DNA of 64,000 nt from Frondihabitans sp. PhB188 (GTDB lineage Bacteria > Actinomycetota > Actinomycetes > Actinomycetales > Microbacteriaceae): assembly GCF_003752365.1 (NCBI RefSeq), contig NZ_RJUO01000002.1:62001-126000 (forward strand), given 5' to 3'. The position numbers and the translations under genes are program-made. The notes under the pieces are model-generated. The model did no database searches, was not told where the DNA came from, and worked only from the letters and a program-made list of their open reading frames with translations. Below are positions 3,491-60,481 of this stretch, piece after piece. Each line of letters opens with the position of its first letter. Position 1 is the first letter of the stretch.

Positions 3491-3524
3491 GAGCGGCGGC
3501 GGGCGGAGAGTTCCTGCGCGTCTC

Positions 3525-3605
3525 AGAAATTCAAGGAGATTTTCGGCGCGGCGGCCCGCGATCGGTGATGATCGGCGGCTGGGGTGAAAAACTCCTTGAA
3601 TTTCG
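3525..3605. repeat. Palindromic element, copy 1 (arms GAAATTCAAGGAG)
   Basis: Inverted repeat between the convergent serine hydrolase and PfkB kinase. Left arm 3526-3544 and right arm 3586-3604 pair over 19 bases with one mismatch; the 41-base loop is G+C-rich. The arms are strikingly A+T-rich for this genome. A second copy with the same outer arms lies at 53233-53316, again between convergent genes. Likely a bidirectional terminator or a dispersed palindromic repeat. Confidence 0.8.
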
Positions 3606-3629
3606 GAGACAGCAGCGGCGGCCGACCGA

Positions 3630-4544
3630 TCAGCGGGAGGGGCGGCCGCCGACGACCGCGAGCGCCTGCGCCGACACCTTCACGCCCTTCCGCGTCGACA
3701 GGGCGAGGCTCGGCGAGTGCAGCCAGCCGCCGAGGAACCCCGCCCTGAACGCGTCGCCCGCGCCGACCGGGTCGACCAGGCGCGTCGCGACCCGCGGCGA
3801 GTGCACCAGCTTCGAGCCCGTGCGGCCCGCGATCGCCGATCCGTCGGGCAGAAACATCGCGACGACCCCGTAGCGGGGCAGCAGCGCCCGCAGCACCTCG
3901 TCGGGCGCGCGGAGGCCGGTGAGCAGGCGGCCCTCGTCGAGGCTCGGGAAGAACAGGTCGGCGCCGCCGGTCACGTCGAGGAACTCCGCCGCGCCGAAGT
4001 CCTCGATGAACCCCGAAGTGGCGGGGTCGACGCTGACCAGGGCACCGGCGCTGCGGACGCGCGTCACCAGGCGCCGGAACGAGACCGGCGTGCGCGACGC
4101 GACGACCGTGTAGCCGGTGGTGTGCACGATCGCGGTGCCGCCGATCAGCTCGTCCGAGACGCCGTCGAGGTCGAGACCCGCGCTGGCGCCGCGATCGGAG
4201 AGCATGGTGCGGTTGGTGCCGTCGAGCGTGATGACGACGGTTCCGGTGTGGCCGTCGGGCGCGTACTCCAGATGCGGCACGACCCCGGCGTTCGCGAGGA
4301 GCTGCGCGTGCCGCTGCACATCGCCGACTCCGACCCGGCCCAGGAACTCGACCCTGACCCCCTGCGTGCCCAGCCATGCCGCGGTGTTCGCCGCCGACCC
4401 GCCCGCCCGGTGCTGGATCCGCGCGCCGACGTCGGTGTTCTGGACCGGCCGCTTCGACGGGGCGACGATGACGTCGTCGAGCACGTCGCCCACGACGAGC
4501 ACGCGCCCGCTCGGCGACGCGGACGCGGGCGCGGTGCGGGGCAT
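3630..4544 (-). CDS. PfkB-family carbohydrate (ribokinase-like) kinase
   Basis: ATP-dependent sugar or nucleoside kinase, 304 residues, the normal family length. N-terminal VLVVGDVLDDVIV is the first beta strand; QHRAGGSAANTAAWLG is the PfkB substrate-binding signature 1; DPVGAGDAFRAGF near residue 260 is signature 2, with the catalytic Asp and the anion hole. The substrate cannot be read from sequence: ribose, pseudouridine, fructose or inosine are all possible, and no sugar-transport or psuG neighbour helps. Start ATG at 4544 has AGAGGA close upstream. It is transcribed alone towards the palindromic element. Confidence 0.88.
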   Translation of the reverse strand: MPRTAPASASPSGRVLVVGDVLDDVIVAPSKRPVQNTDVGARIQHRAGGSAANTAAWLGTQGVRVEFLGRVGVGDVQRHAQLLANAGVVPHLEYAPDGHTGTVVITLDGTNRTMLSDRGASAGLDLDGVSDELIGGTAIVHTTGYTVVASRTPVSFRRLVTRVRSAGALVSVDPATSGFIEDFGAAEFLDVTGGADLFFPSLDEGRLLTGLRAPDEVLRALLPRYGVVAMFLPDGSAIAGRTGSKLVHSPRVATRLVDPVGAGDAFRAGFLGGWLHSPSLALSTRKGVKVSAQALAVVGGRPSR

Positions 4545-4630
4545 GGTTCCTCTTACGACACCACGTTCGGTGCCCGAGCGTCTCGCCCGCCTGGCGAATC
4601 ACCCCCTCGATCACCCCGTACGCTCGGATG

Positions 4631-5071: not shown

Positions 5072-5151
5072 CGAGGCTTCTCGCCGACACACCGAACGTT
5101 CTGTTCCGGATTTCTGGCCCGGGGATGCCGCTCCGGACATACACTCGAAAA

Positions 5152-5739: not shown

Positions 5740-5768
5740 CGCAGTCTCCTGCGAGTAGCGTCGGGACA

Positions 5769-9474: not shown

Positions 9475-10335
9475 ATGACATCGCCAGTGCTGCTGATCAT
9501 CGACCCCGCCGGAACCATCGCGACCGCCGACCCCGACGCCCCGCAGGTGTCGGTCCTCGACCTGGGCGTGACGCGCGGGGACGGCGTCTTCGAGAGCATC
9601 GGCGTCGTCGGCGGCCGAGCCCAGGCCCTCGAGCCGCACCTGACGCGCCTCGCGAGGTCGGCGGCGATGCTCGACCTCCCGGTGCCCGACCTCGACGTCT
9701 GGCGCGAGGCCGTGCTGCGGAGCATCGAGCTGGCCGACGACACCGCGCCCGAGCTGCTCGTCAAGCTCGTCTACACCCGCGGCATCGAGGGGTCGGCGTC
9801 AGCGGCGCCCACCGGCTGGGTGCACCTGTTCGAGGCGGGTGGCTTCGATGAGGAGCGCACGGCGGGGATCGCCGTCGTCACCCTCGACCGCGGCTACCGG
9901 AGCGACGTCCGCGACACCTCGCCGTGGCTGCTGCAGGGCGCGAAGACGCTCTCGTACGCCGTCAACAAGGCGGCGCTCCGCGAGGCCGCCCGCCGCGGGG
10001 CCGACGACGTGATCTTCGTGTCGACCGACGGCATCGTGCTCGAGGGGCCGAACTCGACGGTCATCGCACTCCTCGACGGGGTCTACGTGACCACGCCCGA
10101 CTCGCTCGGCGTGCTCGAGGGCACCACGCAGGCGGCGTTCTTCGCCGACGTCGAGTCACGGGGCGGCTCGACCGCCTACCGCGCCATCACCGTCGACGAG
10201 CTCCACGCCGCGACCGCCCTGTGGCTCGCCTCGTCAGGACGCCAGATCGCCCCGGTGGCCACCCTCGACGGCGAGCCGGTGGCGCAGGAACCGGCACTCA
10301 CCGCCGCCGGGGTCGAGGCTCTCCTGGCCCGCTAG
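9475..10335 (+). CDS. pabC: Class IV PLP aminotransferase, aminodeoxychorismate-lyase like
   Basis: Fold-type IV PLP enzyme of 286 residues. The start LLIIDPAGTI and the block VLDLGVTRGDGVFESIGV are typical; the PLP lysine is in LQGAKTLSYAVN; LEGPNSTV and GVLEGTTQ are the phosphate-binding loops. PabC cleaves 4-amino-4-deoxychorismate to p-aminobenzoate and pyruvate for folate synthesis; branched-chain or D-amino acid transaminases are close relatives, so the symbol is tentative. The start sits six bases behind TAGCGT without a ribosome-binding site. Confidence 0.8.
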   Translation: MTSPVLLIIDPAGTIATADPDAPQVSVLDLGVTRGDGVFESIGVVGGRAQALEPHLTRLARSAAMLDLPVPDLDVWREAVLRSIELADDTAPELLVKLVYTRGIEGSASAAPTGWVHLFEAGGFDEERTAGIAVVTLDRGYRSDVRDTSPWLLQGAKTLSYAVNKAALREAARRGADDVIFVSTDGIVLEGPNSTVIALLDGVYVTTPDSLGVLEGTTQAAFFADVESRGGSTAYRAITVDELHAATALWLASSGRQIAPVATLDGEPVAQEPALTAAGVEALLAR

Positions 10336-10371: not shown

Positions 10372-11727
10372 TCAGCACTCGATGATGTTGACGGCGAGGC
10401 CGGCCGCCGAGGTCTCCTTGTAGTTCGCCGACATGTCGCGCCCGGTCTGGCGCATGGTCTCGACGACGGTGTCGAGGCTGACGAAGTGCGACCCGTCGCC
10501 GAGGAGGGCGAGCCGGGCGGCGGAGACCGCCGTTCCTGCCGCGATCGCATTGCGCTCGATGCAGGGCACCTGCACGAACCCGCCGACCGGGTCGCAGGTC
10601 AGGCCGAGGTGATGCTCCATGGCGATCTCGGCCGCGTTCTCGATCTGGCGCCACGAGCCGCCGAGCACCGCGGTCAGGCCGGCGGCGGCCATCGACGACG
10701 CCGACCCGACCTCGCCCTGGCAGCCGGCCTCGGCTCCTGAGATGGAGGCGTTGCGCTTGTAGAGCGAGCCGATCACGGCGGCGGTCAGGAGGTAGTCGCG
10801 CACGACGGCGGCGCGCTCGATGCCGAGGAAGCGGATCGCGTAGAGGCCGACGGCGGGGATGATCCCGGCGGCTCCGTTGGTGGGTGCCGTCACGACCCGG
10901 CCGCCGCCCGCGTTCTCCTCGTTGACGGCGAGCGCGAACGCCTGCAGCCAGCGAGCCGGGGCATCGAGGTCGGTCGCCGACACCTCGGACAGGCGCGCGG
11001 CCACGTCGGCGGCTCGCCGGGGCACCTTCATCCAGCCGGGGAGCACGCCGGTCGCGGTCAAGCCGGCGTCGATGCACGCCTCCATCGCCGCCCAGCGCGC
11101 TTCGAGCCCGGCGACCACGGCGTCGGCCCCGTGCAGGGCGACCTCGTTGCGCCAGGCGATGTCGGCGATCGGGGCGTCGTGCTCGTCGCAGAGCGCCAGC
11201 AGCTCGGCGGCCGTGTCGAAGCCGAGAGGGGCCTCGCGGTCGGGAAGCGCCTGGTCGGGCTCGCCCTCCCTGACGACGAACCCGCCGCCGACCGAGTAGT
11301 AGACGTCGCGGCGCACCGTCTCGCCCGTCGTCGAGCGCACCTCGAACGAGAGCGCGTTGGGGTGCGCCGGCAGGCGCGTGAGGGGTGCGAGACGCACACC
11401 GGCGAACCCCACCTCGCCGACGCCGTCGAGAGGCAGCGTGCCGGTGGTCCGCTCGGCCAGCCCGCGCACGGCCGCCGGGTCGCACGTCTCGGGATCGAGC
11501 CCCATCAGCCCGCCGATCACCGCGTCGGGCGTGCCGTGGCCGATCCCGGTCGCCGCGAGCGATCCGTACAGCGTCACCTCGAGCGCCTCCACGGAGCCCG
11601 GGGCGCAGGAACCCGCCACCTCGCCGGCGAACCTCCGCCCCGCGCGCATCGGCCCCACCGTGTGCGACGAGGAGGGGCCGATACCGACGGAGAATAAGTC
11701 GAGCGCCGAGACATACGTCGAAGACAT
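10372..11727 (-). CDS. sdaA: L-serine ammonia-lyase (iron-sulfur type)
   Basis: Converts L-serine to pyruvate and ammonia with a [4Fe-4S] cluster. The 451 residues are the single-chain form, beta domain then alpha domain. N terminus: SALDLFSVGIGPSSSHTVGPMRAG, conserved in SDH. Cluster cysteines are visible in GAEAGCQGEVGSA, in TCDPVGGFVQVPC, and near the C terminus IIEC. Start ATG 11727 lies six bases behind TAGCCT on the minus strand, a leaderless arrangement. It is a single-gene unit. Confidence 0.94.
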   Translation of the reverse strand: MSSTYVSALDLFSVGIGPSSSHTVGPMRAGRRFAGEVAGSCAPGSVEALEVTLYGSLAATGIGHGTPDAVIGGLMGLDPETCDPAAVRGLAERTTGTLPLDGVGEVGFAGVRLAPLTRLPAHPNALSFEVRSTTGETVRRDVYYSVGGGFVVREGEPDQALPDREAPLGFDTAAELLALCDEHDAPIADIAWRNEVALHGADAVVAGLEARWAAMEACIDAGLTATGVLPGWMKVPRRAADVAARLSEVSATDLDAPARWLQAFALAVNEENAGGGRVVTAPTNGAAGIIPAVGLYAIRFLGIERAAVVRDYLLTAAVIGSLYKRNASISGAEAGCQGEVGSASSMAAAGLTAVLGGSWRQIENAAEIAMEHHLGLTCDPVGGFVQVPCIERNAIAAGTAVSAARLALLGDGSHFVSLDTVVETMRQTGRDMSANYKETSAAGLAVNIIEC

Positions 11728-11800
11728 GCTCCGAGGCTACCCTTGCCGCGCGGCAGGTTTTCGGGCGGGGCGGCGGGACGGCCGAAGCGGAGCGCAGGAA

Positions 11801-12286
11801 CTACCCCGCCGCCGCTCCCCCGCGCCCGTGCTCGCGCATCGCGTCGCCCATCTCGCCCAGGAACCGCGTCACCGCGTCGAGCTCGTCGGGCGAGTAGCTG
11901 GCCATGACGTCGTCGGTGAGGCGTCCGAGCGGGGCGAAGAAGCCGCGTGCCACGTCGCGGGCGGGCTCGGCGAAATGGACGCGCACGATCCGCCGATCCT
12001 GCTCATCGCGCGTTCTCACGACGTGCCCCGCCTTGGCGAGCCGGTCGATGATGCCGGTCGCCGCCCCGGAGGTCAGGTCGAGCGCCTCGGCGATGCCGCC
12101 GGGCGTGGCCGGCGAGCCGGCGTCCTGCTGGTGCATCACGTAGAGGAGTGCGTCGAGGTCGCTCGACGAGAGTCCGTGCTGTGTCGAGAACGCGGTGGCG
12201 ACGTGACGCGACTCGGTCATGAGCACCTGCAGGCGCATGACGATCTCGGCGCGCCGACCGGAGTCGGGTCGTGTGCTCGGGTTCAT
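11801..12286 (-). CDS. MarR-family regulator of the adjacent exporter
   Basis: 161-residue winged-helix protein. HTH core: LDALLYVMHQQDAGSPATPGGIAEALDLTSGAATGIIDRLAKAG, wing RDEQDRRIVRVHF. The C-terminal dimer helices include LGRLTDDVMASYSPDELDAV. Start ATG 12286 has GAGGAGG nine bases upstream on the minus strand. It is divergent from an MMPL exporter, and a strong double dyad lies between them, so it most likely represses both genes until an exported compound binds (inference from the standard MarR-exporter arrangement). Confidence 0.9.
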   Translation of the reverse strand: MNPSTRPDSGRRAEIVMRLQVLMTESRHVATAFSTQHGLSSSDLDALLYVMHQQDAGSPATPGGIAEALDLTSGAATGIIDRLAKAGHVVRTRDEQDRRIVRVHFAEPARDVARGFFAPLGRLTDDVMASYSPDELDAVTRFLGEMGDAMREHGRGGAAAG

Positions 12287-14475: not shown

Positions 14476-14996
14476 TCAGGCGGCGCCGACCGACAGGTCG
14501 AGCTCTCGCCCGAGGTACCGGGCGAAGTCGGCCGCCCGCCGCTCGACCCCGGCCACGACCCGGGCGAAGCGCTCCGGCCTCAGCGAGGCCGTGCGATCGG
14601 CGTACCCGAGCAGGAACTCGTCGAACGCCCCGAGCAGCCGCACGTCGCCGCGACGAACCGGCGACGCCGTGCCACCCGGGGGCTCGAGGTCGCCGCCGTC
14701 GACGGCCACGCCGCCGAGCGAGGCCGCCCGAGCAGCTCGGTGAGCCAGCGCAGGTCGTCGCGGGCGGCGAACATGAGGGTGCCGCGCATCGGCCAGGAGC
14801 GCACGATGGCGCCCGAGTCGAGGGCCGCATCGACGTCGGCGAGCGAACCGGTCGAGCGGAGCGCCAGGGCCCATTTGACCGCATGGAGATCCTGCGCCTG
14901 GAGGGCCAGCAAGCCCGACGCCGCCTCGGGGACGCTCGAGAATCCGCGCCCGGCGACACCCTGAGCGCGCAGGCGGCGTCGAGCGACCTCGGTCAT
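14476..14996 (-). pseudogene. Remnant of a winged-helix HTH_42 (AlkZ-like) gene
   Basis: The first about 100 codons from ATG 14996 read as the N terminus of the HTH_42 family: LLALQAQDLHAVKWALALRS, IVRSWPMRGTLMF and DDLRWLTELL. That frame then turns into Arg/Ser-rich nonsense and stops at 14580. The family's C terminus, VRLLGAFDEFLLGYADRTASL, appears in another frame ending at 14476. Intact members have about 350-400 residues, so some 200 central residues are missing as well as the frame. An internal deletion with frameshift is the simplest reading. Some relatives are DNA glycosylases that unhook crosslinks. The start still has CAAGCT six bases upstream. Confidence 0.75.
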
Positions 14997-17319: not shown

Positions 17320-17601
17320 GTGACCGACCTCATCCGCCGCCGCCTGCTGGTCGACGGCGTCGTCCAGGGCGTCGGATTCCGCTACTGGACCGAGCACGAG
17401 GCGAACCGCATCGGGGTGGCGGGGTTCGTGCGCAACCGCGAGGACGGCCGCGTCGAGATCGAGGCGGAGGGTACGCCCGACCGGGTGGCCGAGCTGCTCG
17501 CGTGGGTTCGGGACGGCGGGCCGGCCGCCGCACGCGTCGACGGCGTGGAGGTGGGCGACGTGCCGGTACGGGGCGAGGGCGGGTTCACGACGGCCCGCTA
17601 G
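17320..17601 (+). CDS. acyP: Acylphosphatase
   Basis: Hydrolyses the carboxyl-phosphate bond of acylphosphates such as 1,3-bisphosphoglycerate or acetyl phosphate. The 93 residues fit the family exactly. VQGVGFRYW carries the catalytic Arg and phosphate loop; GFVRNREDGRVEIEAEG carries the catalytic Asn. The GTG start is six bases behind TAGGGT (17308-17313) with no ribosome-binding site, so the message is probably leaderless. Confidence 0.95.
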   Translation: MTDLIRRRLLVDGVVQGVGFRYWTEHEANRIGVAGFVRNREDGRVEIEAEGTPDRVAELLAWVRDGGPAAARVDGVEVGDVPVRGEGGFTTAR

Positions 17602-17619
17602 TTCCTGCGCCCGGGGCAC

Positions 17620-18579: not shown

Positions 18580-18632
18580 TGCCCCAGAATACCGGGCGCA
18601 GGAACGTCGGAGGCCCCTCCTAGGCTTGGAGT

Positions 18633-19269: not shown

Positions 19270-21258
19270 GTGACCACCACCGACCGAACCGGTCAGACAG
19301 ACGCCCTCGAGCAGGGTCAGATCAAGGCCCTGCGCAGGAACTCCCTCCGGGCCTGGATGCTCGACGGCCTGAGCGACCGCTCCGGGGTGCACCCCGGCCC
19401 CCACGCCGAGGCACCCGAGAAGACCCACTCGTGGTGGCGCGTCATGTGCCTCACCGGCGTCGACTACTTCTCGACGCTGGGCTACCAGCCGGCGATCGCG
19501 GCCGTCGCCGCGGGCCTGCTGTCGCCGTTCGCGACCATCGTGCTCGTTCTTCTGACCCTGCTCGGCGCGCTCCCCGTCTACCGCCGGGTCGCCCGCGAGA
19601 GCTTCAAGGGCTCCGGCTCGATCGCGATGCTCGAACGGCTGCTGCCGTGGTGGGGCGGCAAGCTGTTCGTGCTGATCCTGCTCGGCTTCGCGGCCACCGA
19701 CTTCATGATCACGGTCACCCTGTCGGCGGCCGACGCGACGGCCCATGCGATCGAGAACCCGTACGCGCCCGGCTGGTTCCACGGGGCGCAGGTACCGCTC
19801 ACGCTCTTCCTGATCGCGCTGCTCGCCGTCGTCTTCCTCCGCGGCTTCAAGGAGGCGATCGGCATCGCGGTCGTGCTGGTCGGCCTCTACCTGGTGCTGA
19901 ACGCCGTCGTCATCGTCGTCGCCTTCGTGCACGTCGGCGAGAACACGCAGGTGATCGGGAACTGGTGGCAGGCGCTCACCACCCAGCACTCCAATCCGCT
20001 CGCGATCGTCGGGATCTCGCTGCTGGTGTTCCCCAAGCTCGCACTGGGTCTCTCCGGCTTCGAGACCGGGGTCGCCGTCATGCCTCAGATCACCGGCGAC
20101 AAGGACGACACCCCCGAGCGTCCGCTCGGCCGCATCCGCGGCGCCAAGCGCCTGCTGGCCACGGCCGCGATCGTCATGAGCTGCTTCCTGATCACGTCGA
20201 GCATCGCGACCACGCTGCTGATCCCGCAGAAGGAGTTCCAGGCGGGCGGACAGGCCAACGGGCGGGCGCTGGCCTACCTCGCCCACCAGTTCCTGGGCAA
20301 TGGATTCGGCACGGTCTACGACATCTCGACCATCACGATCCTCTGGTTCGCCGGCGCCTCGGCCCTGGCCGGCCTCCTCAACCTGGTGCCGCGCTACCTG
20401 CCCCGCTACGGCATGGCCCCGCACTGGGCCGCCGCGGTCCGCCCGCTCGTGCTGGTCTTCACCGCGATCGCCTTCATCATCACTCTCGCCTTCGACGCAA
20501 ACGTCGACGCGCAGGGCGGCGCCTACGCGACCGGCGTGCTCGTGCTCATCACGTCGGCCTCGGTCGCCGTCTTCCTGTCCGCCCTGCACAAGCGCCAGCA
20601 GAAGCGCACCATCGGCTTCGGCGTCGCAGTCGCCGTCTTCGGCTACACGACGGTGCTGAACGTGATCGAGCGCCCCGAGGGCGTGCGCATCGCGGCCCTC
20701 TTCATCGCCGGGATCGTCGTCGTCTCGATCCTGTCGCGCGTGCGCCGTTCGTTCCAGCTCCGGGCCACCTCGGTCTCGCTCGACGCCGCCGCCCTGGCAT
20801 TCGTGCAGGAGGACGCCGACGAGTACGGAGCCGTCCGCATCGTGTCGAACGAGCCCGACGACGGCTCACGGCTCGAGTACAAGACCAAGCTCGCCGACGA
20901 GCGCAAGGCCAGCGGCATTCCCATGCGGTCGCCGATCATGTTCCTCGAGGTCTACCCCGACGACTCCTCCAACTTCGAGGAGGACCTCGAGGTGTGCGGG
21001 TACTCGGTGCACGGGTACCGCGTGCTGAAGGTCCGCAGCGGCAACGTGCCGAACACGATCGCGACGATCCTGCTCGAGATCCGCGATGTGACGGGCGTCG
21101 TGCCCGACATCTACTTCGAGTGGACGGAAGGCAGCCCGATCTCGAACATGCTGCGCTTCTTGGTGACCGGCGTCGGCGAGGTGGCGCCCGTGACCCGCGA
21201 GGTGCTGCGGCGCGCGGAGAAGGAGCGCTCTCGTCGCCCCGACGTGCACGTGAGCTGA
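19270..21258 (+). CDS. APC-superfamily permease with C-terminal cytoplasmic domain
   Basis: 662 residues: a soluble N-terminal tail with [15 protein letters not shown], about 12 TM helices between residues 60 and 480, and a cytoplasmic domain of some 170 residues ([20 protein letters not shown]). [20 protein letters not shown] is the first-helix motif of the APC/KUP group. Amino acid transport is the usual annotation; the length and tail resemble the potassium importer KimA, which I consider possible but unproven. GTG start; TAGAAC six bases upstream is a weak -10 box. Confidence 0.8.
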
Positions 21259-22658: not shown

Positions 22659-22769
22659 GGCTCCATTCTGGCGGGCCGGGAGGGGCGGCGGCGGGGAGTT
22701 CCTGCCATCTGAAGGCAACTCGGCGCCACCCGTAGCGTGTCGAGGACCCGCCTCCGGTAGCGTGCACGG

Positions 22770-23576
22770 ATGCGCAGCGTGCCCGATTCCCTCGACCTCG
22801 ACGTCGTCTCTGAGATCGACTCCCGACTCGACGCGGTCATCGCCGACCACGACGTCGTCGTGCCCTGGGCCATCGAGAGCGGCAGCCGGGCGTGGGGCTT
22901 CCCCTCACCCGACAGCGACTACGACTGCCGGTTCTTCTTCGTGCGCGGTCGCGACCGCTACCTGTCGCTCTGGCCCGAGCGCGACGTGATCGAGACGCCG
23001 CTCGACGAGGTCTTCGACGTGAACGGCTGGGACCTCGCCAAGGCCGTGCGGCTCCTGGCCCGCGGAAACGCGGTGGTCGTCGAGTGGCTGAGGTCGCCGA
23101 TCGTGTACCGGGGCGACGAGTGGTTCCGGGAGGAGTTCCTGCACCTGGCCTCCGAGGTGGCCGACCGCGCGCTGACCGGGCGCCACTACCTGCACACCGG
23201 CATCAACCACTGGCCCGACACCGACGCCCCGATGAAGCTGAAGCGCATCTTCTACTCGCTCCGCGCCGCGACGACCCTGCGGTGGCTCGTGTCGAACCCC
23301 GACTCGGCTGTGGCGCCGATGGACCTCCCGACCCTGCTCGCCGAGAGCGACCCGCCCGCCGACGTGCTGGCCGAGACCGCCGAGCTGCTCGAAAAGAAGC
23401 GCACGACGCGGGAACCCGGGGTCGGCCGCCCGCCCGGAGCCGTCGCCGCTTTCATCACCGGCGAGTTCGAGCGCGCCACCGAGCTGTACGAGACCGCCGA
23501 GCTGGTGCCGTCGGTCGTCAAGCAGACGGCCTCCGACGCATTCTTCCGCCGCGTGCTCGAGCGCTACCAGGGCTGA
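22770..23576 (+). CDS. Predicted nucleotidyltransferase, YcgL/COG3541 family
   Basis: 268 residues. The pol-beta-like core GSRAWGFPSPDSDYDCRFF at about residues 44-62 has the G-S and D-x-D metal ligands. It continues with WDLAKAVRLLARGNAVVVEWLRSPI and HYLHTGINHW, both typical of the YcgL group. The biochemical role is unknown. ATG is six bases behind TAGCGT (22758-22763), leaderless. Divergent from the SDR operon, convergent with zwf. Confidence 0.85.
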   Translation: MRSVPDSLDLDVVSEIDSRLDAVIADHDVVVPWAIESGSRAWGFPSPDSDYDCRFFFVRGRDRYLSLWPERDVIETPLDEVFDVNGWDLAKAVRLLARGNAVVVEWLRSPIVYRGDEWFREEFLHLASEVADRALTGRHYLHTGINHWPDTDAPMKLKRIFYSLRAATTLRWLVSNPDSAVAPMDLPTLLAESDPPADVLAETAELLEKKRTTREPGVGRPPGAVAAFITGEFERATELYETAELVPSVVKQTASDAFFRRVLERYQG

Positions 23577-23598: not shown

Positions 23599-24966
23599 TC
23601 AGCGCCAGCTCCTCGGCCCGTCGGTGCCCGCCGGGTACTCGTCGAGCGGCACCTTCCCGGCGCGCCAGGCCTTGAGCACCGGCTCGACGATCCGCCAGCC
23701 CTCGACCGCCGCGTCGCCACGCACCGACAGGGCCGCGTCGCCGTCGAGGATCCCCTGCAGCACCTCGCCGTAGGCCGGCAGGTCGCCCTCGCCGAAGTCG
23801 ACTTCGAGGCTGGCACGGTCGATCGTGTAGGGGTCGCCGGGCCCGTTGACGTTCAGCTCGAGGCTCATCGTGTCGGGCGAGATCGCGATGCGGAGGCGAT
23901 CGGCGGTGGTGCGGGTGTGGAACTCCGGCGGCACGTGCGTCGGCGCCTTGAACGTGATCATGATCTCGCGCCGGTGAGTCAGGAGGGCCTTGCCCGAGCG
24001 CAGCAGGATCGGCACGCCGGCCCACCGCATGTTGCGCACCTCGACGGTCATCTCGGCGAGCGTCTCCGTCCCGAGATCGGGGTCGACCCCGGGCTCCTTC
24101 TTGTAGGCGGGCAGCTTGCGCCCCTCGATCGTGCCCGTGCCGTACCGCGCTCGGCGGCTGGTGGTCGCGTCGTCGTTCCACAGGTGCGTGGCCCGGAGCA
24201 CGAGCTGCTTCTGGTCGCGCACGTCGGCCGCCCCGAGAGTGGCGGGCGCCTCCATCACGAGGACGGCCATCACCTGCAGCAGGTGGCTCTGGATCATGTC
24301 GACGAGCGCCCCGGCGTGGTCGTAGTAGCGCGCGCGGTTCTCGAGGCCGAGCTGCTCGTCGTAGACGATCTCGATGCTCTCGACATCGCGGCTCGACAGC
24401 ATCGGCTCGATCAGGCGGTTCGCGAACCGGAGTCCCAGCAGGTTCAGCACCGTCGACCGGCCGAGGAAGTGATCGACCCGGTGGATCCGGTTCTCGGGCA
24501 CGATCTTCAGCAGCTGCGCGTTCAGCTTCTTCGCCGACCGCTCATCGGTGCCGAACGGCTTCTCGAGCGCGAGCGACGTGCCCTCGGGCACCCCCATCTT
24601 CTGGAGCGCCGCGCAGGCCTTCTCGGTGATCGCCGGCGGGAGGGCGAAGTAGATCGCGGGCGGTGAGGCGCAGGAACTCAGCAGCCCCGCCAGCCCCTCC
24701 TCCGAAGTGACATCCGCCTTGATGTACGTCGTCGAGCGCAGCGCCGCCTGCACGGCGGCCCCCTTCGCCCCCTCGCTCGCGAAGGAGTCGGCGACCCGCT
24801 GCTTCCACTCCTCGGGGCTGAGGTCTTCGACGCCCGAGCCGATCAGCTGCACGCGGCGGTCGCGGTCGTGCGTCAGGAGCGTCCCGAGGCCGGGCATGAG
24901 GAGCCGTGCAGCGAGGTCGCCCGAGGCGCCGAGGATGAGGAGGGTCGAGGTCTTCGAGGGGGCCAT
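23599..24966 (-). CDS. zwf: Glucose-6-phosphate 1-dehydrogenase
   Basis: First step of the oxidative pentose phosphate pathway, giving NADPH. 455 residues. N-terminal nucleotide motif ILGASGDLAARLL; active-site stretch RVDHFLGRSTVLNLLGLRFAN, where families usually show RIDHYLGKE; EIVYDEQLGLENRARYYDHAGALVDMIQSHLLQ is also conserved. It is somewhat short and divergent, and actinobacteria often carry two zwf genes; no tkt, tal or opcA neighbours are here, so this may be the secondary copy (inference). ATG is seven bases behind TAGCAT on the minus strand. Confidence 0.92.
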   Translation of the reverse strand: MAPSKTSTLLILGASGDLAARLLMPGLGTLLTHDRDRRVQLIGSGVEDLSPEEWKQRVADSFASEGAKGAAVQAALRSTTYIKADVTSEEGLAGLLSSCASPPAIYFALPPAITEKACAALQKMGVPEGTSLALEKPFGTDERSAKKLNAQLLKIVPENRIHRVDHFLGRSTVLNLLGLRFANRLIEPMLSSRDVESIEIVYDEQLGLENRARYYDHAGALVDMIQSHLLQVMAVLVMEAPATLGAADVRDQKQLVLRATHLWNDDATTSRRARYGTGTIEGRKLPAYKKEPGVDPDLGTETLAEMTVEVRNMRWAGVPILLRSGKALLTHRREIMITFKAPTHVPPEFHTRTTADRLRIAISPDTMSLELNVNGPGDPYTIDRASLEVDFGEGDLPAYGEVLQGILDGDAALSVRGDAAVEGWRIVEPVLKAWRAGKVPLDEYPAGTDGPRSWR

Positions 24967-33503: not shown

Positions 33504-33558
33504 GGGTGATTGCTTGGACGGCGGTTGGGCTGCACGGGAGTTCCTGCGCAGGAGGGGG

Positions 33559-40601: not shown

Positions 40602-41307
40602 CGCGGGCCTGAGCCGTCACCAGCGGCGTCTCTCCCGCGAGGTCGAGGCCGAGGTCGACGAGCACGACCCGCCCGGCGAGGCCCGACGCGGGCGCCAGCA
40701 GCAGCCCGGCCTTCACGGCGCCGAACGTCACGGTCACCAGCGCAGGAAGCACGGCTCCGGGCTCGGGCACCGACCCGTCGTCGCACCCGACGCCCGAGGG
40801 CAGATCCACCGCGACGACCGACGGCGCGCCCATCATCCGCGTGATCACGCGCGGGCGCACAGCCTCGACGACCTCCTCGGCCCGACCACGGAGCGCAGGA
40901 TCTCCTCCGGACCCGATGCCGAGGATCCCGTCCACCACGACGTCCACCCCCTCGAGCAGCCCGTCGAACTCGGCCGAGCCGGGCACGGCCCCGCGCGCGT
41001 CGGCCGACGCGCCCGCAGCGACGGCGGCGGCGAGCCCGGCGTCGTGGACGCGCGAGCCCGTGGTCAGGATCCGCACGTCCGTGCCGTCGGCAGCGATGGA
41101 CGCCGCGGCGAAGAGCGCATCGCCGCCGTTGTCTCCCGTTCCTGCGAGCACCAGGACCACGCCGGGTACGGATCCGCGGGTGCTCAGGACGGCGCGCACC
41201 TCGTCGGCGAGCGCGGCAGCGGCACGCCTCATCAGGGGTTCGCCCGCCTCGAGCAGGGGCGCCTCGGCCCGACGGACCTGCTCGGCGCTGTATCCCGGAG
41301 TCGTCAT
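40564..41307 (-). CDS. nnrE: NAD(P)H-hydrate epimerase (YjeF N-terminal domain)
   Basis: Epimerises damaged NAD(P)HX so that the dehydratase can repair it. 247 residues covering only the YjeF N domain: VVLVLAGTGDNGGDALFAA is the GxGNNGGD signature, VDGILGIGS and AVDLPSGVGCDDG the later loops. The dehydratase half of bacterial fusion proteins is missing. ATG 41307 is six bases behind CACCAT on the minus strand, leaderless. The last codons overlap the terminator of the MFS gene. Confidence 0.88.
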   Translation of the reverse strand: MTTPGYSAEQVRRAEAPLLEAGEPLMRRAAAALADEVRAVLSTRGSVPGVVLVLAGTGDNGGDALFAAASIAADGTDVRILTTGSRVHDAGLAAAVAAGASADARGAVPGSAEFDGLLEGVDVVVDGILGIGSGGDPALRGRAEEVVEAVRPRVITRMMGAPSVVAVDLPSGVGCDDGSVPEPGAVLPALVTVTFGAVKAGLLLAPASGLAGRVVLVDLGLDLAGETPLVTAQARENGSAPQELPRG

Positions 41308-42936: not shown

Positions 42937-44229
42937 ATGACTTCTCTCACCGACCACATCGACTCGTTCTCCGCGTTCATCTCGGCATCGCCGTCGTCGT
43001 ACCACGCGGCCGAGGAGGCCGCGGCGCGTCTCACGGCGGCCGGCTTCGAGCGTCTGGCCGAGGGCGACGCCTGGCCGACGTCGGCCGGTCGGCGCTTCGT
43101 CGTGCGCGACGGCGCCGTGATCGCCTGGGTGCAGCCGGAGGGGGCGACCGCGACGACGCCGTTCCGGATCGTCGGCGCGCACACCGACTCGCCCTCGTTC
43201 AAGCTCAAGCCGAACCCCGACACGGGCAGCTTCGGCTGGCAGCAGGCGGGCGTGGAGGTCTACGGCGGTCCGCTCTCGAACTCGTGGCTCGACCGAGACC
43301 TGGAGTTCGCCGGCCGCCTCGTCACCCGCGACGGCGCCGTCCACCTGGTGCGCACGGGGCCGGTCCTGCGCTTCCCGCAGCTGGCGATCCATCTCGACCG
43401 CGGGGTCAACGACGGGCTGAAGCTCGACCCGCAGCGTCACCTGCACCCGATCGTCGGCCTCGACTCGTCGGGCGGGCGCGGCGGCGACATCCTCGGCGCC
43501 CTCGCCGACATCGCGGGGGTCCGGGCCGACGAGGTGCTGGGCCACGACGTGCTCGTCGCCGACACGGCGGCACCGGCGCGCATCGGCTTCGACGGCGAGC
43601 TGCTCGCGGCCGGCCGCATGGACAACCTCTCGAGCGTGCACGCGGGGCTGACCGCCCTGATCGAGGGGGCGCAGGAACTCGCCGCCGCCGCCTCCATCTC
43701 CGTCCTGGCCGCCTTCGACCACGAGGAGGTGGGGTCGGCCAGCACGAGCGGTGCGAGCGGCCCGATCCTGGCCGACGTGCTCACGCGCATCTCCGCCGGC
43801 CTCGGTGCGACCGACAGCGATCGCTTCCGCGCGTTCTCGGCGTCGTGGTGCCTGTCGAGCGACGCCGGCCACGCGGTGCACCCGAACTACCCGGAGCGAC
43901 ACGACCCCGGCAACCTGCCGGTGCCGAACGGCGGGCCGCTGCTCAAGATCAACGCGAAGCAGCGCTACGCGACCGACGGCGTCGGCTCGGCCGAGTGGGC
44001 GCGGGCCTGCGAGCAGGCGGGCGTGCCGTTCCAGCCGTTCGTCTCGAACAACGCCGTGCCCTGCGGGTCGACCATCGGACCGCTCACCGCGACCCTCCTG
44101 GGCATCCGCACGATCGACGTCGGCGCTCCCCTGCTGTCGATGCACTCGGCTCGCGAGCTGGCCGGGGTCGACGACCTCCTCTCGCTCTCGCTCGCTGCGG
44201 GTGCGTTCCTCCACCCGCGCAGCGTCTAG
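42937..44229 (+). CDS. apeB: M18-family aminopeptidase
   Basis: Dinuclear-zinc aminopeptidase, 430 residues. RIVGAHTDSPSFKLKPNP holds the first His/Asp ligands, GRMDNLSSVHAGL the bridging Asp, AAFDHEEVGSASTSGASGP the catalytic Glu, SSDAGHAVHPNY and IGPLTATLLGIRTIDVG further ligands. These match aspartyl/neutral aminopeptidases of family M18, which release N-terminal residues in the cytoplasm. No obvious ribosome-binding site before ATG 42937. Confidence 0.93.
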   Translation: MTSLTDHIDSFSAFISASPSSYHAAEEAAARLTAAGFERLAEGDAWPTSAGRRFVVRDGAVIAWVQPEGATATTPFRIVGAHTDSPSFKLKPNPDTGSFGWQQAGVEVYGGPLSNSWLDRDLEFAGRLVTRDGAVHLVRTGPVLRFPQLAIHLDRGVNDGLKLDPQRHLHPIVGLDSSGGRGGDILGALADIAGVRADEVLGHDVLVADTAAPARIGFDGELLAAGRMDNLSSVHAGLTALIEGAQELAAAASISVLAAFDHEEVGSASTSGASGPILADVLTRISAGLGATDSDRFRAFSASWCLSSDAGHAVHPNYPERHDPGNLPVPNGGPLLKINAKQRYATDGVGSAEWARACEQAGVPFQPFVSNNAVPCGSTIGPLTATLLGIRTIDVGAPLLSMHSARELAGVDDLLSLSLAAGAFLHPRSV

Positions 44230-50106: not shown

Positions 50107-50163
50107 CAGTTCCTGCGCAGGCGTGCCCTTTCTACGAAGCGGATGTGAGGGCACACGGTCGTG

Positions 50164-54193: not shown

Positions 54194-54294
54194 CCCTCTA
54201 TTGTGCGCAGGAACTCGGGACCGCGGCTGGTATCGCGAGTCCTACCGTCGACGGGGGCCTGGGCACTCCGAGGCACGACGAGCACCATGGAGCC

Positions 54295-56037: not shown

Positions 56038-56985
56038 ATGTTCGACAAGCGATTCATCACATCCGCCATCTCCAGGAGCGCCGAGAACGGCCTCGACCGT
56101 CGCAACTTCTTCACCGCCGCCGGCGTCGCCGGCGTGGGTGTGGGTGTGGCGGCCATCGCCGGCAACACTCTCGCCGGCCCTGCCGCTCCGGCCCATGCCG
56201 ATGAGGTCAGCGACGCCGCTATCCTCAACTTCGCCCTCAACCTCGAGTACCTCGAGGCCGAGTTCTACCTCCGCGCCGTCACCGGCTCGGGCCTGCCCTC
56301 GAGCATGACCGACGGCACGGCGACCCTGGGTGGCGTCGTCGGCGGCAAGAAGGTTCCGTTCAAGTCGGGCGCCATCAAGGCCATCGCGACCGAGATCGCG
56401 GCGGACGAGAAGGCGCACGTCGCGTTCCTGCGCTCCGCTCTCGGTTCGGCCAAGGTCTCGCGCCCGGCGATCGACCTCAAGACGAGCTTCAGCGCCGCGG
56501 CCACCGCCGCCGGCCTGATCAAGAAGGGCCAGACCTTCGATCCGTTCGCCAACGAGGAGAACTTCCTGCTCGGCGCTTACCTGTTCGAAGACGTCGGAGT
56601 CACGGCCTACAAGGGTGCGGCGCCGCTCATCACGAACGCCACGTACCTGGGCGCCGCCGCCGGCATCCTGGCCGTCGAGGCGTACCACGCGGGCATCATC
56701 CGCGAGCGGATCCTGAACACCGGGCTGTACGAGCAGGCGCAGGCCATCTCGAACGCCCGAGACAGCCTCGACGGCAAGTCGAACGACGACCAGGGCGTGG
56801 TCGAGAAGAACGTGCGCAACCTCGTTCCGACCGACAAGAACGGCATCGCCTACGGCCGGACCGCACCGCGCGTGCTGAACGTCGTCTACCTGACGCCGAA
56901 CGCGGCCACCAAGGGCGGCTTCTACCCGGCCGGCGTCAACGGCACCATCTCGACGAGCGGCGCGGCGGGCGACCCCACGTCCTGA
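56038..56985 (+). CDS. Tat-exported ferritin-like protein, paralogue 1
   Basis: 315 residues. A Tat signal, [20 protein letters not shown], ends at PAHA near residue 57. The Ferritin_2-type helical domain follows: [19 protein letters not shown] has the first Glu ligand pair, [17 protein letters not shown] the E-x-x-[23 protein letters not shown] and [17 protein letters not shown] the later helices. Possible extracytoplasmic diiron protein, perhaps for oxidative stress or desiccation (inference). AGAAAGGGA precedes the ATG. A close paralogue follows. Confidence 0.85.
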
Positions 56986-57191: not shown

Positions 57192-58139
57192 ATGTTCGAC
57201 AAGAAATTCATCACGACCGCTATCACGCGAAGCGCCGAGAACTCGCTCGACCGGCGCAACTTCTTCACCGCGGCCGGCGTCGCCGGCGTCGGGGTCGGCG
57301 TGGCTGCTGTCGCGGGAGGGGCCTTGCCCGCCCACGCCGACACCGCGTCGGACGGAGCCGTCACCGACTCCGCGATCCTCAACTTCGCGCTGAACCTCGA
57401 GTACCTCGAGGCGGAGTTCTACCTCCGCGCGGTGTACGGCACCGGCCTCGACAGCTCGCTGATCGGCGGGATCGACCCGCAGGGGAAGGTGCTCGGCGGC
57501 CACAAGGTGCCGTTCAAGTCATCGTTCGTCCGTGCCATCGCCACGGAGATCGCGGCCGACGAGAAGGCGCACGTCAAGTTCCTGCGCACCGCTCTCGGCG
57601 GAGCCAAGGTGGCACGGCCCGCGATCGACCTGCGCAACAGCTTCACGGCTGCGGCCATGGCGGCCGGCCTGATCAAGAAGGGCGAGACGTTCGACCCGTT
57701 CGCGAGCGACGAGAACTTCCTGCTCGGCGCCTACATCTTCGAGGACGTGGGAGTCACGGCCTACAAGGGGGCTGCGCCGCTCATCACCAACAAGACGTAC
57801 CTCGGCGCCGCCGCGGGCATCCTGTCGGTGGAGGCGTACCACGCCGGCATCATCCGGAGCGAGCTCTTCCGCAAGGGCCTGCACACTCCCGCCGACCGGA
57901 TCTCGGACGCCCGCGACTCGCTCGACGGTCCGACGAAGGACGACCAGGGCGTCGTCGTCAACAACACGCAGAACCTCGTTCCGACGGACGCGAACTCCAT
58001 CGCGTTCGGCCGGACCGCGGCCCGCGTGCTGAACGTCGTCTACCTGAACCCGAACCAGGTCGACAAGGGCGGATTTTTCCCCGCGGGCGTCAACGGCGCG
58101 ATCGTCGCGAGCGGGAACCCGGGCAGCCCGACGGCCTGA
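57192..58139 (+). CDS. Tat-exported ferritin-like protein, paralogue 2
   Basis: 315 residues, collinear with paralogue 1 and very similar over most of its length. Tat motif [81 protein letters not shown]. The insert [17 protein letters not shown]-like loop (here [17 protein letters not shown]) differs. AGAAGGAGAAC precedes the ATG. The duplication includes the promoter and leader, so both copies respond to the same signal (inference). Confidence 0.85.
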
Positions 58140-58188: not shown

Positions 58189-59187
58189 CTACAGCCAGTG
58201 GCGGTGCTTGAACACCCGGTAGAGGCCGAACCCCGCAGCGAGCATCAGGAGGACTGCGAAGGGGTAGCCGAACTCCCAGTGCAGCTCGGGCATGTGGTCG
58301 AAGTTCATGCCGTAGATCGAGGCGATCAGGGTCGGCGTGAACAGGATGGCCGCCCACGACGAGATCTTCTTGACCTCCTCGTTCTGCTGGATGCTCTGGT
58401 CGGTCTGCCGCCTCGTCACGATCGTGGCGTGCACCGTCAGCGCGTTGTCGAGGATGGCGCGGAACGAGGCCACACGTTCGACGATCAGGAGCGTGTGGTC
58501 CTGGACGTCGCGCAGATTGCGCTGCAGCTCGACGTCGACGCCGTACTTCTCGCTGCCGCGCTGCAGGTTGTCGAGCATCTTCACGAGCGGCACGACGGCC
58601 CGCTGGAAGTTGATCACCTCGCGCGACAGGTTGTAGATGCGCTCCGAGAGCCCCGTGCTCTCGAGGCGGAAGAGATCGTTCTCGATCTCGTCGATGTCGT
58701 TCTCGAGGCCGGCCAGCACGGGCTCGTACTCGTCGACGACCTGGTCGAGGATCGCGTAGAGCACGGCCTCGGGCCCCTCCGCCAGCAGCTCGGGAGCCGC
58801 CTCCATCCGCTTGCGCACGGTCATCAGGTCAGGTGACTCCGCGTGCCGGATGGTGACGACGAACTCGGGCCCGAGGAAGACGTGGAGCTCGCCGAACTCG
58901 ACGGTCTCCTCCGCGTCGACGTAGCGGGCCGGTCGCAGCACTGCGAACAGGATGTCGTCGTAGCGCTCCAGCTTGGCGCGCTGGTGGCCGAGCAGGGCGT
59001 CCTCGACGGCGAGGGGGTGGAGCGAGAACTCGGCGGCGACCGAGCGCACCTCGGCGGGGCTCGGCCGGTACAGGCCGATCCAGCCCATGCCGTCGTGCTG
59101 GTGCATCAGGCGGTAGGTGGCGTCCAGGCTGCGCGGGTTCTCGATCCGGCGTCCCGCGACGTACACGCCGTTGTCGATGAGGGGCAT
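58189..59187 (-). CDS. corA: CorA-family magnesium/cobalt transporter
   Basis: 332 residues. A cytoplasmic funnel domain with a long helix (DNIDEIENDLF to about residue 240), then two TM helices at the C terminus; YGMNFDHMPELHW is the GMN selectivity motif and the periplasmic loop. The short basic tail RVFKHRHWL follows. It takes up Mg2+ as a homopentamer. ATG 59187 is six bases behind CATCCT on the minus strand. Confidence 0.95.
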   Translation of the reverse strand: MPLIDNGVYVAGRRIENPRSLDATYRLMHQHDGMGWIGLYRPSPAEVRSVAAEFSLHPLAVEDALLGHQRAKLERYDDILFAVLRPARYVDAEETVEFGELHVFLGPEFVVTIRHAESPDLMTVRKRMEAAPELLAEGPEAVLYAILDQVVDEYEPVLAGLENDIDEIENDLFRLESTGLSERIYNLSREVINFQRAVVPLVKMLDNLQRGSEKYGVDVELQRNLRDVQDHTLLIVERVASFRAILDNALTVHATIVTRRQTDQSIQQNEEVKKISSWAAILFTPTLIASIYGMNFDHMPELHWEFGYPFAVLLMLAAGFGLYRVFKHRHWL

Positions 59188-59223
59188 CCCAGAAGGATGC
59201 TCCCCGCGGGTGAACGAGCGGCG

Positions 59224-59796
59224 TCAGACGCGCCGCGAGCGCCAGAGGGCGGCGGCGAGGAAGGCCGCGCCGGCGACGATGTCGAGGGTCCAGTAGACGG
59301 GGCTGGTGGTGTCCGAGATGAACAGGAGGCCGTACGCGCCCTCCGCCATCAGCACGACGGTCAGGGGGAGCACGGCGAGCCAGCGTCGAGCAGGGCGCCC
59401 CCAGCGCACGTACGCCGCACAGGCGCCGAGGATCAGGCCGGCCGCGATGCCGGGCACCGTGTACATGTTCTGCAGCGGAGCGGCGTAGTAGTAGCCGCGC
59501 CAGATGCTGACCACCCCGTAGGCCTCGAGCATCGCCTCGAAGGCCACGATGCCGAGGATCGCGCCGAGCAGGGGCCGGGCCCGCGAGAGCCACACGAGCA
59601 GGAAGGCGAACATGCTCCAGCCACCCGCCGAGTTCGCCAGCGACCCCAGCCAGTCGGGCAGGAACCCCTGCGCCGGGCTGGTCGCCCCGCCGATGAGAGC
59701 GGCCCCGACGAGCACGATCACGACGGCGCGCACGGTGCTCGCGACAGTCTCGGAGCGCCACGGGTGACGGACGGCGGCAGCATTCGCAGAACTCAT
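59224..59796 (-). CDS. DUF6518-like integral membrane protein
   Basis: 190 residues, about six TM helices (VVIVLVGAALIGGATSPAQG, WSMFAFLLVWLSRA, LLGAILGIVAFEAMLEAYGV, AAGLILGACAAYV, LTVVLMAEGAYGLLF, VAGAAFLAAALW). TSPAQGFLPDWLGSLANSAGGW fits the DUF6518 family; function unknown. ATG 59796 is six bases behind TACAGT on the minus strand. Divergent from the phosphopantetheinyl transferase. Confidence 0.75.
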   Translation of the reverse strand: MSSANAAAVRHPWRSETVASTVRAVVIVLVGAALIGGATSPAQGFLPDWLGSLANSAGGWSMFAFLLVWLSRARPLLGAILGIVAFEAMLEAYGVVSIWRGYYYAAPLQNMYTVPGIAAGLILGACAAYVRWGRPARRWLAVLPLTVVLMAEGAYGLLFISDTTSPVYWTLDIVAGAAFLAAALWRSRRV

Positions 59797-59890
59797 ATAT
59801 CGACTGTAGGGGCTCTCCGCAGCCAGGCAATCCCTCCCCGGATCGGATCGTCTCGTCCTCCAGGACCACCCGGGCCGCTACCGTCGAGGC

Positions 59891-60481
59891 ATGCCCCACG
59901 ACGCTCGGGTGTGGATCGTCGACTGCGACGCGCCCATCGACACCGGCTCGCTCGACGCGGGCGAGCGACGGCGGGCTGCGCGGTTCGCGAGCGCCCGCGA
60001 CGCACGCCGGTACGCGGCAGCGCACGCGGGGCTGCGCGACGTGCTGGGCGAGGCGGCGGGGGTGGCGGGCGGCGGCCTGGAGTTCCTGCGCGCCCCCTGC
60101 TTCTCGTGCGGCGAGCGGCACGGCAAGCCCTCCCTCGCCGACGGCCCGCACTTCAGCCTGTCGCGCTCGGGGCGGTGGGCGGCGATCGCGGTCGCCGACG
60201 AGCCGGTCGGCGTCGACATCGAGAGGGCGCAGGAACTCGGGGCGGCACCCTCCCTCGCCGACACTCTGCTGGCGGAGGGCGAGGCATCGTCCGACCTGCT
60301 GCGCACCTGGGTGCGCAAAGAGGCGCTCCTGAAGGCGACCGGCGAGGGTCTCACCCGGCCGATGACCACCGTGCGCGCCGACGACGAGCGGATCGTCGAC
60401 CTCGCTCTGGACGGTCCGCTGGTGGGGGCGCTGGCGTTCACCGTCGCGTCGCCGGCGTCCACTAGGGTGCGCAACCGATGA
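59891..60481 (+). CDS. 4'-phosphopantetheinyl transferase (Sfp type)
   Basis: 196 residues. Transfers the phosphopantetheine arm of CoA to a carrier-protein serine. The signatures are PVGVDIERAQEL and WVRKEALLKATGEGL, with the metal-binding Asp/Glu pairs; GKPSLADGPHFSLSRSGRW is the third conserved block. ATG is six bases behind TACCGT (59879-59884), leaderless. It overlaps the NRPS gene as ATGA, so it very probably primes that protein's carrier domain. Confidence 0.93.
   Translation: MPHDARVWIVDCDAPIDTGSLDAGERRRAARFASARDARRYAAAHAGLRDVLGEAAGVAGGGLEFLRAPCFSCGERHGKPSLADGPHFSLSRSGRWAAIAVADEPVGVDIERAQELGAAPSLADTLLAEGEASSDLLRTWVRKEALLKATGEGLTRPMTTVRADDERIVDLALDGPLVGALAFTVASPASTRVRNR

What the first reader, a model, noticed from the sequence alone, without database searches (positions are those of the whole stretch)
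3508..60238. Over-represented 12-base word GCGCAGGAACTC, in several frames and between genes
By eye the core GCGCAGGAAC occurs at least 18 times: plus strand at 10282, 11603, 11792, 18596, 19332, 24668, 28735, 43669, 54205, 60227; minus strand at 3510, 17601, 29338, 33540, 50109, 56424, 57578, 60082. The form GCAGGAACTC is also present at 31420 and, on the other strand, 22696, 23133, 30892. A simple 70 % G+C model predicts fewer than one. The copies fall in intergenic DNA and in several coding frames (AQEL, SSCA, VPAP, RRNS), so the selection is on DNA, not on a peptide. The near-equal strand use argues against a polar FtsK (KOPS) signal; a Chi-like recombination site, a DNA-uptake-type word, a methylation target or a protein-binding site remain.
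Basis: partly seen in the sequence, partly recalled or inferred. Interest (0 to 1): 0.8.

Follow-up and report, generated by a model that had tools for sequence, protein, structure and literature searches.

The report
Candidate DNA-uptake words in Microbacteriaceae
A short DNA word is scattered several hundred times through this bacterium's genome, and each sister species looked at has its own version of it, which looks most like a password for taking up DNA of one's own kind; the uptake itself has not been tested.

Summary
GCGCAGGAAC occurs 18 times in the window and 734 times in the 3.79-Mb genome; the reversed word 7 times. Only this species is boosted: six other genomes of the genus (Frondihabitans) have 14-39 copies, 292 of other genera at most 76. 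In 7 of 7 Frondihabitans samples the most over-represented 8-mer contains AGGA, with species-specific ends. Other genera have GGATGCCGC-type words, up to 2858 copies. The words show no strand polarity, use both strands and several frames of genes, and are absent from 40 kb of a relaxase-bearing contig. Of 25 sampled genomes, 18 of 18 normal-sized ones with type IV pilus or second-tad genes have such a word at rank 1 or 2; 0 of 5 with neither and 0 of 2 reduced ones do (kinship uncorrected, five chosen for high counts). Best reading: dialects of a DNA-uptake sequence in Actinomycetota; one 2025 paper knows such words only from Neisseriaceae and Pasteurellaceae. Biased uptake and a receptor are unproven. 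Chi- or KOPS-like polarity is not seen.

The parts
3510..3519 (-). exact GCGCAGGAAC (12-mer exact 3508-3519), intergenic
10282..10291 (+). exact word, in gene 9487-10335 (+), sense frame 0
11603..11612 (+). exact word, antisense in gene 10372-11727 (-)
11792..11801 (+). exact word at the edge of gene 11801-12238 (-)
17601..17610 (-). exact word at the edge of gene 17320-17601 (+)
18596..18605 (+). exact word, intergenic
19332..19341 (+). exact word (12-mer exact), in gene 19270-21258 (+), sense frame 2
24668..24677 (+). exact word (12-mer exact), antisense in gene 23599-24966 (-), glucose-6-phosphate dehydrogenase
28735..28744 (+). exact word (12-mer exact), antisense in gene 27836-29482 (-); sister G201 has GCGGAGGACCTC here
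29338..29347 (-). exact word, in gene 27836-29482 (-), sense frame 0
33540..33549 (-). exact word (12-mer exact 33538-33549), intergenic
43669..43678 (+). exact word (12-mer exact), in gene 42937-44229 (+), M18 aminopeptidase, sense frame 0
50109..50118 (-). exact word, intergenic
54205..54214 (+). exact word (12-mer exact), intergenic
56424..56433 (-). exact word, antisense in gene 56038-56985 (+)
57578..57587 (-). exact word, antisense in gene 57192-58139 (+)
60082..60091 (-). exact word (12-mer exact 60080-60091), antisense in gene 59909-60481 (+); sister G087 has GCGCAGGATCCG at the same place
60227..60236 (+). exact word (12-mer exact), in gene 59909-60481 (+), sense frame 0; sister G087 has GCGCAGGAGCC at the same place
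40893..40904 (+). one-mismatch site GCGCAGGATCTC; G087 GCGCAGGATCCG, G246 GCGCAGGATCCT, G201 GCCCAGGATCGC at the same place (not kept in G150): probably an inherited site
31420..31429 (+). GCAGGAACTC (partial word)
22696..22705 (-). GCAGGAACTC (partial word)
23133..23142 (-). GCAGGAACTC (partial word; GTGCAGGAACTC)
30892..30901 (-). GCAGGAACTC (partial word; GAGCAGGAACTC)
14610..14619 (+).

Best explanation
The word is the local dialect of a DNA-uptake sequence. Cells take up environmental DNA with a retractile pilus (a type IV pilus in Frondihabitans; a two-locus tad pilus in other genera) and ComEC. A surface DNA receptor binds fragments that carry the word better than others. Fragments from relatives that carry the word replace homologous alleles more often, so the word accumulates by biased recombination at many tolerant places, on both strands and in several frames, where substitutions make it. 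A change in the receptor shifts the preferred ends around a conserved GGA core and the genome follows; hence species dialects, inherited sites that differ only in the ends, and relics of an older form. SHOWN: genome-wide enrichment, dialects, shared core, no strand polarity, substitutions and no inserted cassette at aligned sites, absence from sampled mobile DNA, presence of pilus and ComEC genes. INFERRED: that uptake is biased by the word, that a receptor exists, and which pilus carries it.
For: 734 copies vs 7 reversed; boosted in this species alone among 299 family genomes. In 7 of 7 Frondihabitans samples the top 8-mer holds AGGA, with species-specific ends, against a codon-pair-preserving null; CGCAGGATCC, perhaps the older form, is 2.1- to 10-fold in all seven (5 to 28 copies each). 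G000 keeps GCGCAGGATC at 33 vs 8.5. Sister G087 has its own form at the same place at window 60080 and 60227; of 43 site-by-sister comparisons 31 have no gap and none shows the word as an inserted cassette. No strand polarity in 8 of 8 genomes. Low-GC 2-kb windows: 2 copies in 54 kb vs 104 in 430 kb. 0 copies in 40 kb of contig C6, which bears a TrwC relaxase, about 7.7 expected at the genome mean; half of this 40 kb is also in the low-GC sample, so the two are not independent. ComEC and over-cut-off pilins in 7 of 7; a type IV pilus gene cluster. A GGAT/AGGA word ranks first in 17 of 18 normal-sized genomes with type IV pilus or second-tad genes and second in the 18th, behind an overlapping word; 0 of 5 with neither. 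Over 199 genomes GGATGCCGC is commoner where the second tad ATPase is present (>=2.5 Mb: 106 genomes, median 160 per Mb, vs 43 genomes, 53; p 7e-8, not corrected for kinship). Micrococcus luteus needs two tad loci for transformation (PMC4322843, passages read).
Against: No uptake or transformation data exist for this genus in what I searched. No receptor is identified: the pilins are divergent (33-58% identity), but so are PilN and PilO (38-56%), so divergence points to none of them. Type IV pilus markers alone predict the family word weakly (genus level p 0.055). Exceptions: G043, G115, G153, G155 and the incomplete G177 exceed 150 GGATGCCGC per Mb with neither marker; G013 and G030 have a divergent second tad ATPase but no boosted word. 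Hairpin-forming inverted pairs, usual for Neisseriaceae DUS, are absent: 5 pairs under 150 bp in 484 kb (4 inverted, 1 direct), the closest 75 bp apart. One-mismatch variants in the core are not enriched. In 36 Curtobacterium loci around pilT no such word stood out, though that region shows none in two Frondihabitans either. Ranks depend on settings: (words of 5 or more copies, smaller samples) another 8-mer came first in G246, G150, G285 and G084; one search required 10 copies. G142, G060, G106, G057 and G043 were sampled because their GGATGCCGC count was high. G034 (91 vs 45) and G084 (20 vs 5.8) are weak cases.
Confidence: 0.6

Rival explanations
1. A non-polar chromosome-binding site: a nucleoid or chromosome-organising protein binds the word on the main chromosome; binding specificity drifts between species.
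For: Dispersed, without strand polarity, absent from the sampled 40 kb of a relaxase-bearing contig.
Against: Known organising sites of this abundance are, to my recollection, palindromic or conserved within a family; here ends change between species of one genus. Does not explain why sampled genomes without type IV pilus or second tad lack such words.
Confidence: 0.15
2. A Chi-like recombination signal read by a RecBCD/AddAB/AdnAB-type enzyme.
For: Abundance of about 0.2 per kb is of the Chi order (recalled); intergenic and coding positions.
Against: Chi-type sites lean to one strand with replication (recalled); here the heterogeneity chi2 is 13.6 on 19 df where about 51 is expected at 75% polarity, with the same outcome in 7 other genomes. 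Species dialects inside a genus. I did not look for the enzymes.
Confidence: 0.08
3. A DNA-modification or restriction-related target (methylation, phosphorothioation).
For: Some dialects hold GAAC or GATC, which I recall as phosphorothioation contexts.
Against: The G246 and G150 words hold GATGC; restriction targets are usually avoided (recalled) rather than boosted 14-fold (106 vs 7.8); a 10- to 12-base word is longer than such targets (recalled).
Confidence: 0.06
4. A mobile or insertion-borne repeat.
For: High copy number, boosted in one species only.
Against: No aligned sister shows the word as an inserted cassette (31 of 43 comparisons have no gap at all), and information falls off outside 13 bases.
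Confidence: 0.02
5. Codon usage or codon-pair effect (for example ATC CTG, TTC CTG).
For: Reverse complements of some words read common codon pairs.
Against: Excess persists against a codon-level Markov null, in several frames and both strands and between genes; sisters with similar base composition lack the word.
Confidence: 0.03

Closest known systems
DNA uptake sequence (DUS) dialects of Neisseriaceae, read by the minor pilin ComP
   Same: Short non-palindromic word in hundreds to thousands of copies, conserved short core with species-specific ends (PMC3630211, passages); unusual distribution in conjugative elements (PMC7371117, abstract); type IV pilus and ComEC present.
   Different: Unrelated core (GGA, with A before or T after, not CTG); Gram-positive, high-GC hosts; hairpin-paired copies not seen; receptor unknown; uptake untested.
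Uptake signal sequence (USS) of Pasteurellaceae
   Same: Abundant dispersed word with two dialects (PMC12616744, passages).
   Different: Other sequence; other phylum; its receptor (ComN/PpdA) is itself only predicted in that paper.
Flp/tad-dependent natural transformation of Micrococcus luteus
   Same: Two distant tad loci plus ComEA/ComEC in the same phylum (PMC4322843, passages); the four sampled boosted genomes without type IV pilus markers and with a strong word (G142, G060, G106, G057) have the second tad ATPase clade.
   Different: The terms 'uptake sequence' and 'sequence-specific' do not occur in that paper's main text. Frondihabitans G000, G004, G087 and G150 lack the second tad clade and have a type IV pilus instead. 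That the two clades correspond to tad-1 and tad-2 of M. luteus was not tested.
Chi sites and KOPS
   Same: Short, abundant chromosomal words (recalled).
   Different: Those are polar (recalled); here no polarity.

Membership tests
DNA uptake sequence (DUS/USS-type) | Short (about 9-12 nt) motif strongly enriched over the whole genome | tested here: met
   734 vs 7 reversed; 106 vs 7.8 in 484 kb
DNA uptake sequence (DUS/USS-type) | Dispersed on both strands without polarity | tested here: met
   G000 83/65, p 0.81 for heterogeneity; p 0.24 to 0.95 in seven further genomes; single stretches such as L072 (5/14) and L098 (4/12) are skewed
DNA uptake sequence (DUS/USS-type) | Dialects with a conserved core among relatives | tested here: met
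   7 of 7 Frondihabitans samples; other genera
DNA uptake sequence (DUS/USS-type) | Host encodes pilus and ComEC machinery | tested here: met
   ComEC is in 195 of 199 family genomes and so discriminates nothing
DNA uptake sequence (DUS/USS-type) | Scarce in recently acquired mobile DNA | tested here: met
   0 in 40 of the 195 kb of contig C6, which has a relaxase; low-GC windows 2 in 54 kb vs 104 in 430 kb; the two tests share L027
DNA uptake sequence (DUS/USS-type) | Inverted pairs at terminators (usual in Neisseriaceae, not defining) | tested here: not met
   no pair closer than 75 bp in 484 kb
DNA uptake sequence (DUS/USS-type) | Specific surface receptor | tested here: inconclusive
   three genes with N-methyl pilin hits and one PilX-like gene by position; none singled out
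DNA uptake sequence (DUS/USS-type) | Preferential uptake or transformation of word-bearing DNA | not testable with these tools
   needs an experiment
Chi / KOPS | Strand polarity with replication | tested here: not met
   (polarity within stretches; origin and terminus were not located)
Restriction-modification target | Modified base at the word | not testable with these tools
   no methylome

The most novel reading that the evidence does not exclude
Many Microbacteriaceae share one evolving uptake-sequence language with a GGA core, read both in lineages that use a type IV pilus and in lineages that use a two-locus tad pilus. By what one 2025 paper says is known, it would be the third family and the first Gram-positive group with sequence-guided DNA uptake.
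Probability: 0.4. Interest if true: 0.95.

Novelty: new variant of a known kind. Interest (0 to 1): 0.85.

Why it matters
[quoted passage not shown] A dialect system in high-GC Gram-positives would show that sequence-guided uptake arose again, under another cell envelope, and would give one genus with at least five distinct dialects in seven genomes for testing how receptor and genome co-evolve and how dialects isolate species. It also offers a genome-only marker of transformable lineages in a phylum whose competence is little known (abstract of PMC8467076 in the listing).

Tried and rejected
Type IV pilus genes as the sole requirement: rejected, because G142, G060 and G106 have neither PilM nor N-methyl pilin hits but carry strong words. 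ComEC presence as discriminator: useless, 195 of 199. Whole-family test with one word: positive but confounded by kinship and by dialect shifts. Words around pilT in named Curtobacterium, Leifsonia, Frigoribacterium and other loci: uninformative; my count there also double-counts palindromes, and two Frondihabitans show no such word in that region either. Hairpin pairs: none. The order in which matches are printed by the genome search (all + first for large contigs) looked like polarity; I judged it a listing artefact, since one search shows both strands in stretches of the same contig. Papers: searches gave 1, 0, 0, 2 and 0 papers (listings only); none is about such words in Microbacteriaceae or Actinomycetota by its title and abstract start. 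This covers an open-access library only. Of the 26 papers (20 listed) I opened one, PMC4322843 (passages); of the 44 (20 listed) three, PMC3630211 and PMC12616744 (passages) and PMC7371117 (abstract and outline). (Chi, AdnAB): listing only.

Weak points of method: genes were called with a home-made codon caller; nulls are simulated; about 504 kb of the 3.79-Mb genome was analysed as letters, though the counts are for whole genomes. Rows dropped: one search ranked words with at least 5 copies, with at least 10. At k = 9 and 10 the best AGGA word is second in one genome each (G246, G150). In one search, of 37 sites with up to 2 mismatches, 12 aligned to G087, 13 to G201, 8 to G246 and 10 to G150; the rest were dropped; the CAGGA core was kept at 6 of 12, 3 of 13, 1 of 8 and 1 of 10. 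In some searches the marginal PilM hit of G073 (below the cut-off) was not counted, and the second tad clade was set at E below 1e-80 after seeing the values. In one search two of five genomes with neither marker (G017, G043) have some other 8-mer at p 1e-6.4 and 1e-7.0, so p alone does not separate the groups; the identity of the top word does. In one search a run of C at a contig end outranks the word at k = 10. Two notebook slips: entry 1 gives the family maximum as about 79 (recount 76), and entry 7 calls window 44689-46371 an ABC protein (AMP-binding enzyme).
Full report
WHAT IS THERE. The 10-mer GCGCAGGAAC is at all 18 stated places; it or a piece of it heads the window's list of over-represented words at each k from 8 to 12. 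Genome-wide it occurs 391 + 343 = 734 times, its reversed form 7 times. The information spans about 13 bases, GCGCAGGAACTCS, with CAGGA as the firm core. Of 99 exact copies in 444 kb, 25 lie between genes, where about 13 would be expected from the non-coding share, and coding copies use sense and antisense frames (20/12/2 and 16/3/18).

BOOSTED IN ONE SPECIES. Of 299 genomes of the family searched, only this one is boosted: six same-genus genomes have 14 to 39 copies, 292 of other genera at most 76.

DIALECTS. Against a null that keeps codon pairs, the best 8-mer of each of seven Frondihabitans samples (80 to 164 kb) contains AGGA, out of 16 to 20 thousand distinct 8-mers each. The ends differ: G000 GCGCAGGAACTC, G201 GCGCAGGATCG, G087 GCGCAGGAGC with CGCAGGATCC, G285 GCAGGATC(C), G004 AGGATCCGGC, G246 CAGGATGCGA, G150 GCAGGATGCC. 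In the table of ten chosen words each has its highest ratio in the species it was taken from, or, for CGCAGGATCC, in G285 (GCGCAGGAAC: 17-fold in G000, 0 to 1.3-fold elsewhere). CGCAGGATCC is raised 2.1- to 10-fold in all seven and may be the older form; G000 still holds GCGCAGGATC at 33 vs 8.5. At k = 8 support is strongest for G201, G000, G004 and G285 (1e-34 to 1e-17) and weaker for G087, G150 and G246 (1e-11 to 1e-9).

HOW SITES ARISE. Against sisters at 78-80% identity, 43 site-by-sister comparisons were possible; 31 have no gap and none shows the word as an inserted cassette: for instance window 28735 GCGCAGGAACTC is GCGGAGGACCTC in G201. At 60080 and 60227 sister G087 has its own form in the same place, and 40893 is kept in GGATC form in three of four sisters. 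In most comparisons (32 of 43) the sister does not keep the CAGGA core, so most sites are not shared. This is what turnover of inherited and newly made sites with shifting ends looks like.

NO POLARITY, NOT IN SAMPLED MOBILE DNA. In eight genomes strand counts within stretches are no more skewed than chance (G000 83/65; heterogeneity chi2 13.6 on 19 df, about 51 if 75% polar; the others p 0.24 to 0.95). The word is scarce in low-GC windows (2 in 54 kb vs 104 in 430 kb, p 4e-4) and absent from 40 kb of the 195-kb contig C6, which has a TrwC relaxase and a resolvase; the two tests share the stretch L027. Neisseriaceae DUS distributions have been used to find conjugative elements in the same way (PMC7371117, abstract).

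MACHINERY. The genome has ComEC and a gene cluster with PilB, PilT, PilC, a major pilin, further pilin-like proteins, PilD, PilM and PilO by Pfam; three of the pilin genes have N-methyl hits. The names PilV, PilW, PilX and PilN rest on position and resemblance (recalled); PilN was not scanned. Across the genus PilB is 92-95% identical, PilC 84-94%, PilM 80-84%, PilT 72-87%, PilD 65-71%, PilN and PilO 38-56%, pilins 33-58%: no pilin stands out.

THE FAMILY. In other genera the words are of the form GGATGCCGC, GGATGCGC or (weakly) GGATCC. GGATGCCGC reaches 2858 copies (G142; reversed 122) and is high in many genera. Type IV pilus markers (PilM or N-methyl pilin, 105 of 199 genomes) go with it (median 155 vs 47 per Mb), but weakly at genus level (p 0.055), and three strong genomes lack them. 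Those have a second clade of tad ATPase. Of the 199, among genomes of at least 2.5 Mb: both markers 73 genomes, median 187 per Mb; second tad only 33, 99; type IV only 20 (four Frondihabitans among them), 51; neither 23, 57. In the uniform test of 25 sampled genomes, 17 of 18 normal-sized ones with either system have a GGAT/AGGA word at rank 1 and the 18th at rank 2, all at p <= 1e-5.5; 0 of 5 with neither and 0 of 2 reduced genomes with a divergent tad ATPase do. Genomes are related, five were picked for a high count, three samples are only 40 to 60 kb, and ranks shift with settings, so this is association, not proof. Micrococcus luteus needs two distant tad loci for transformation (PMC4322843, passages).

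VERDICT. Works like a DUS/USS system, probability about 0.6. Member of that family in the strict sense: not shown, since biased uptake and the receptor are untested. Chi and KOPS fail on polarity. Searches for earlier reports found none (listings of an open-access library only).

Noticed in passing
window 56038-56985 and 57192-58139: Two genes of equal length (316 codons) side by side, each with the word at the same offset: probably tandem paralogues (not compared).
   Followed up: no
L027 13087-13206 (G000 contig C6): An 8-base tandem repeat (unit CAAAGCCG), 13 matches to its 10-mer, near a TrwC relaxase gene.
   Followed up: no
L020 57-119 (start of G000 contig C2): A run of 18 G followed by 13 and 31 C near the contig end, probably an assembly artefact.
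   Followed up: no
L053 (G246 ComEC region): The ComEC match of G246 lies in two adjacent frames: perhaps a sequencing error or a broken gene in that species.
   Followed up: no
G285 C2 (449,692 bases): 15 of the 19 N-methyl pilin matches of Frondihabitans sucicola lie on its second contig; sister genomes have 3 to 5 in all. Some G285 genes read in pieces, perhaps assembly indels.
   Followed up: no
G034 samples L084-L087: GCGGATCC 91 vs 45 in 80 kb: a weak GGATCC-type word in a genome with the second tad clade and no type IV pilus markers.
   Followed up: partly
L112, L115-L117 (G285): CTGAGTTAC, 7 copies all between called genes: a separate intergenic repeat.
   Followed up: no
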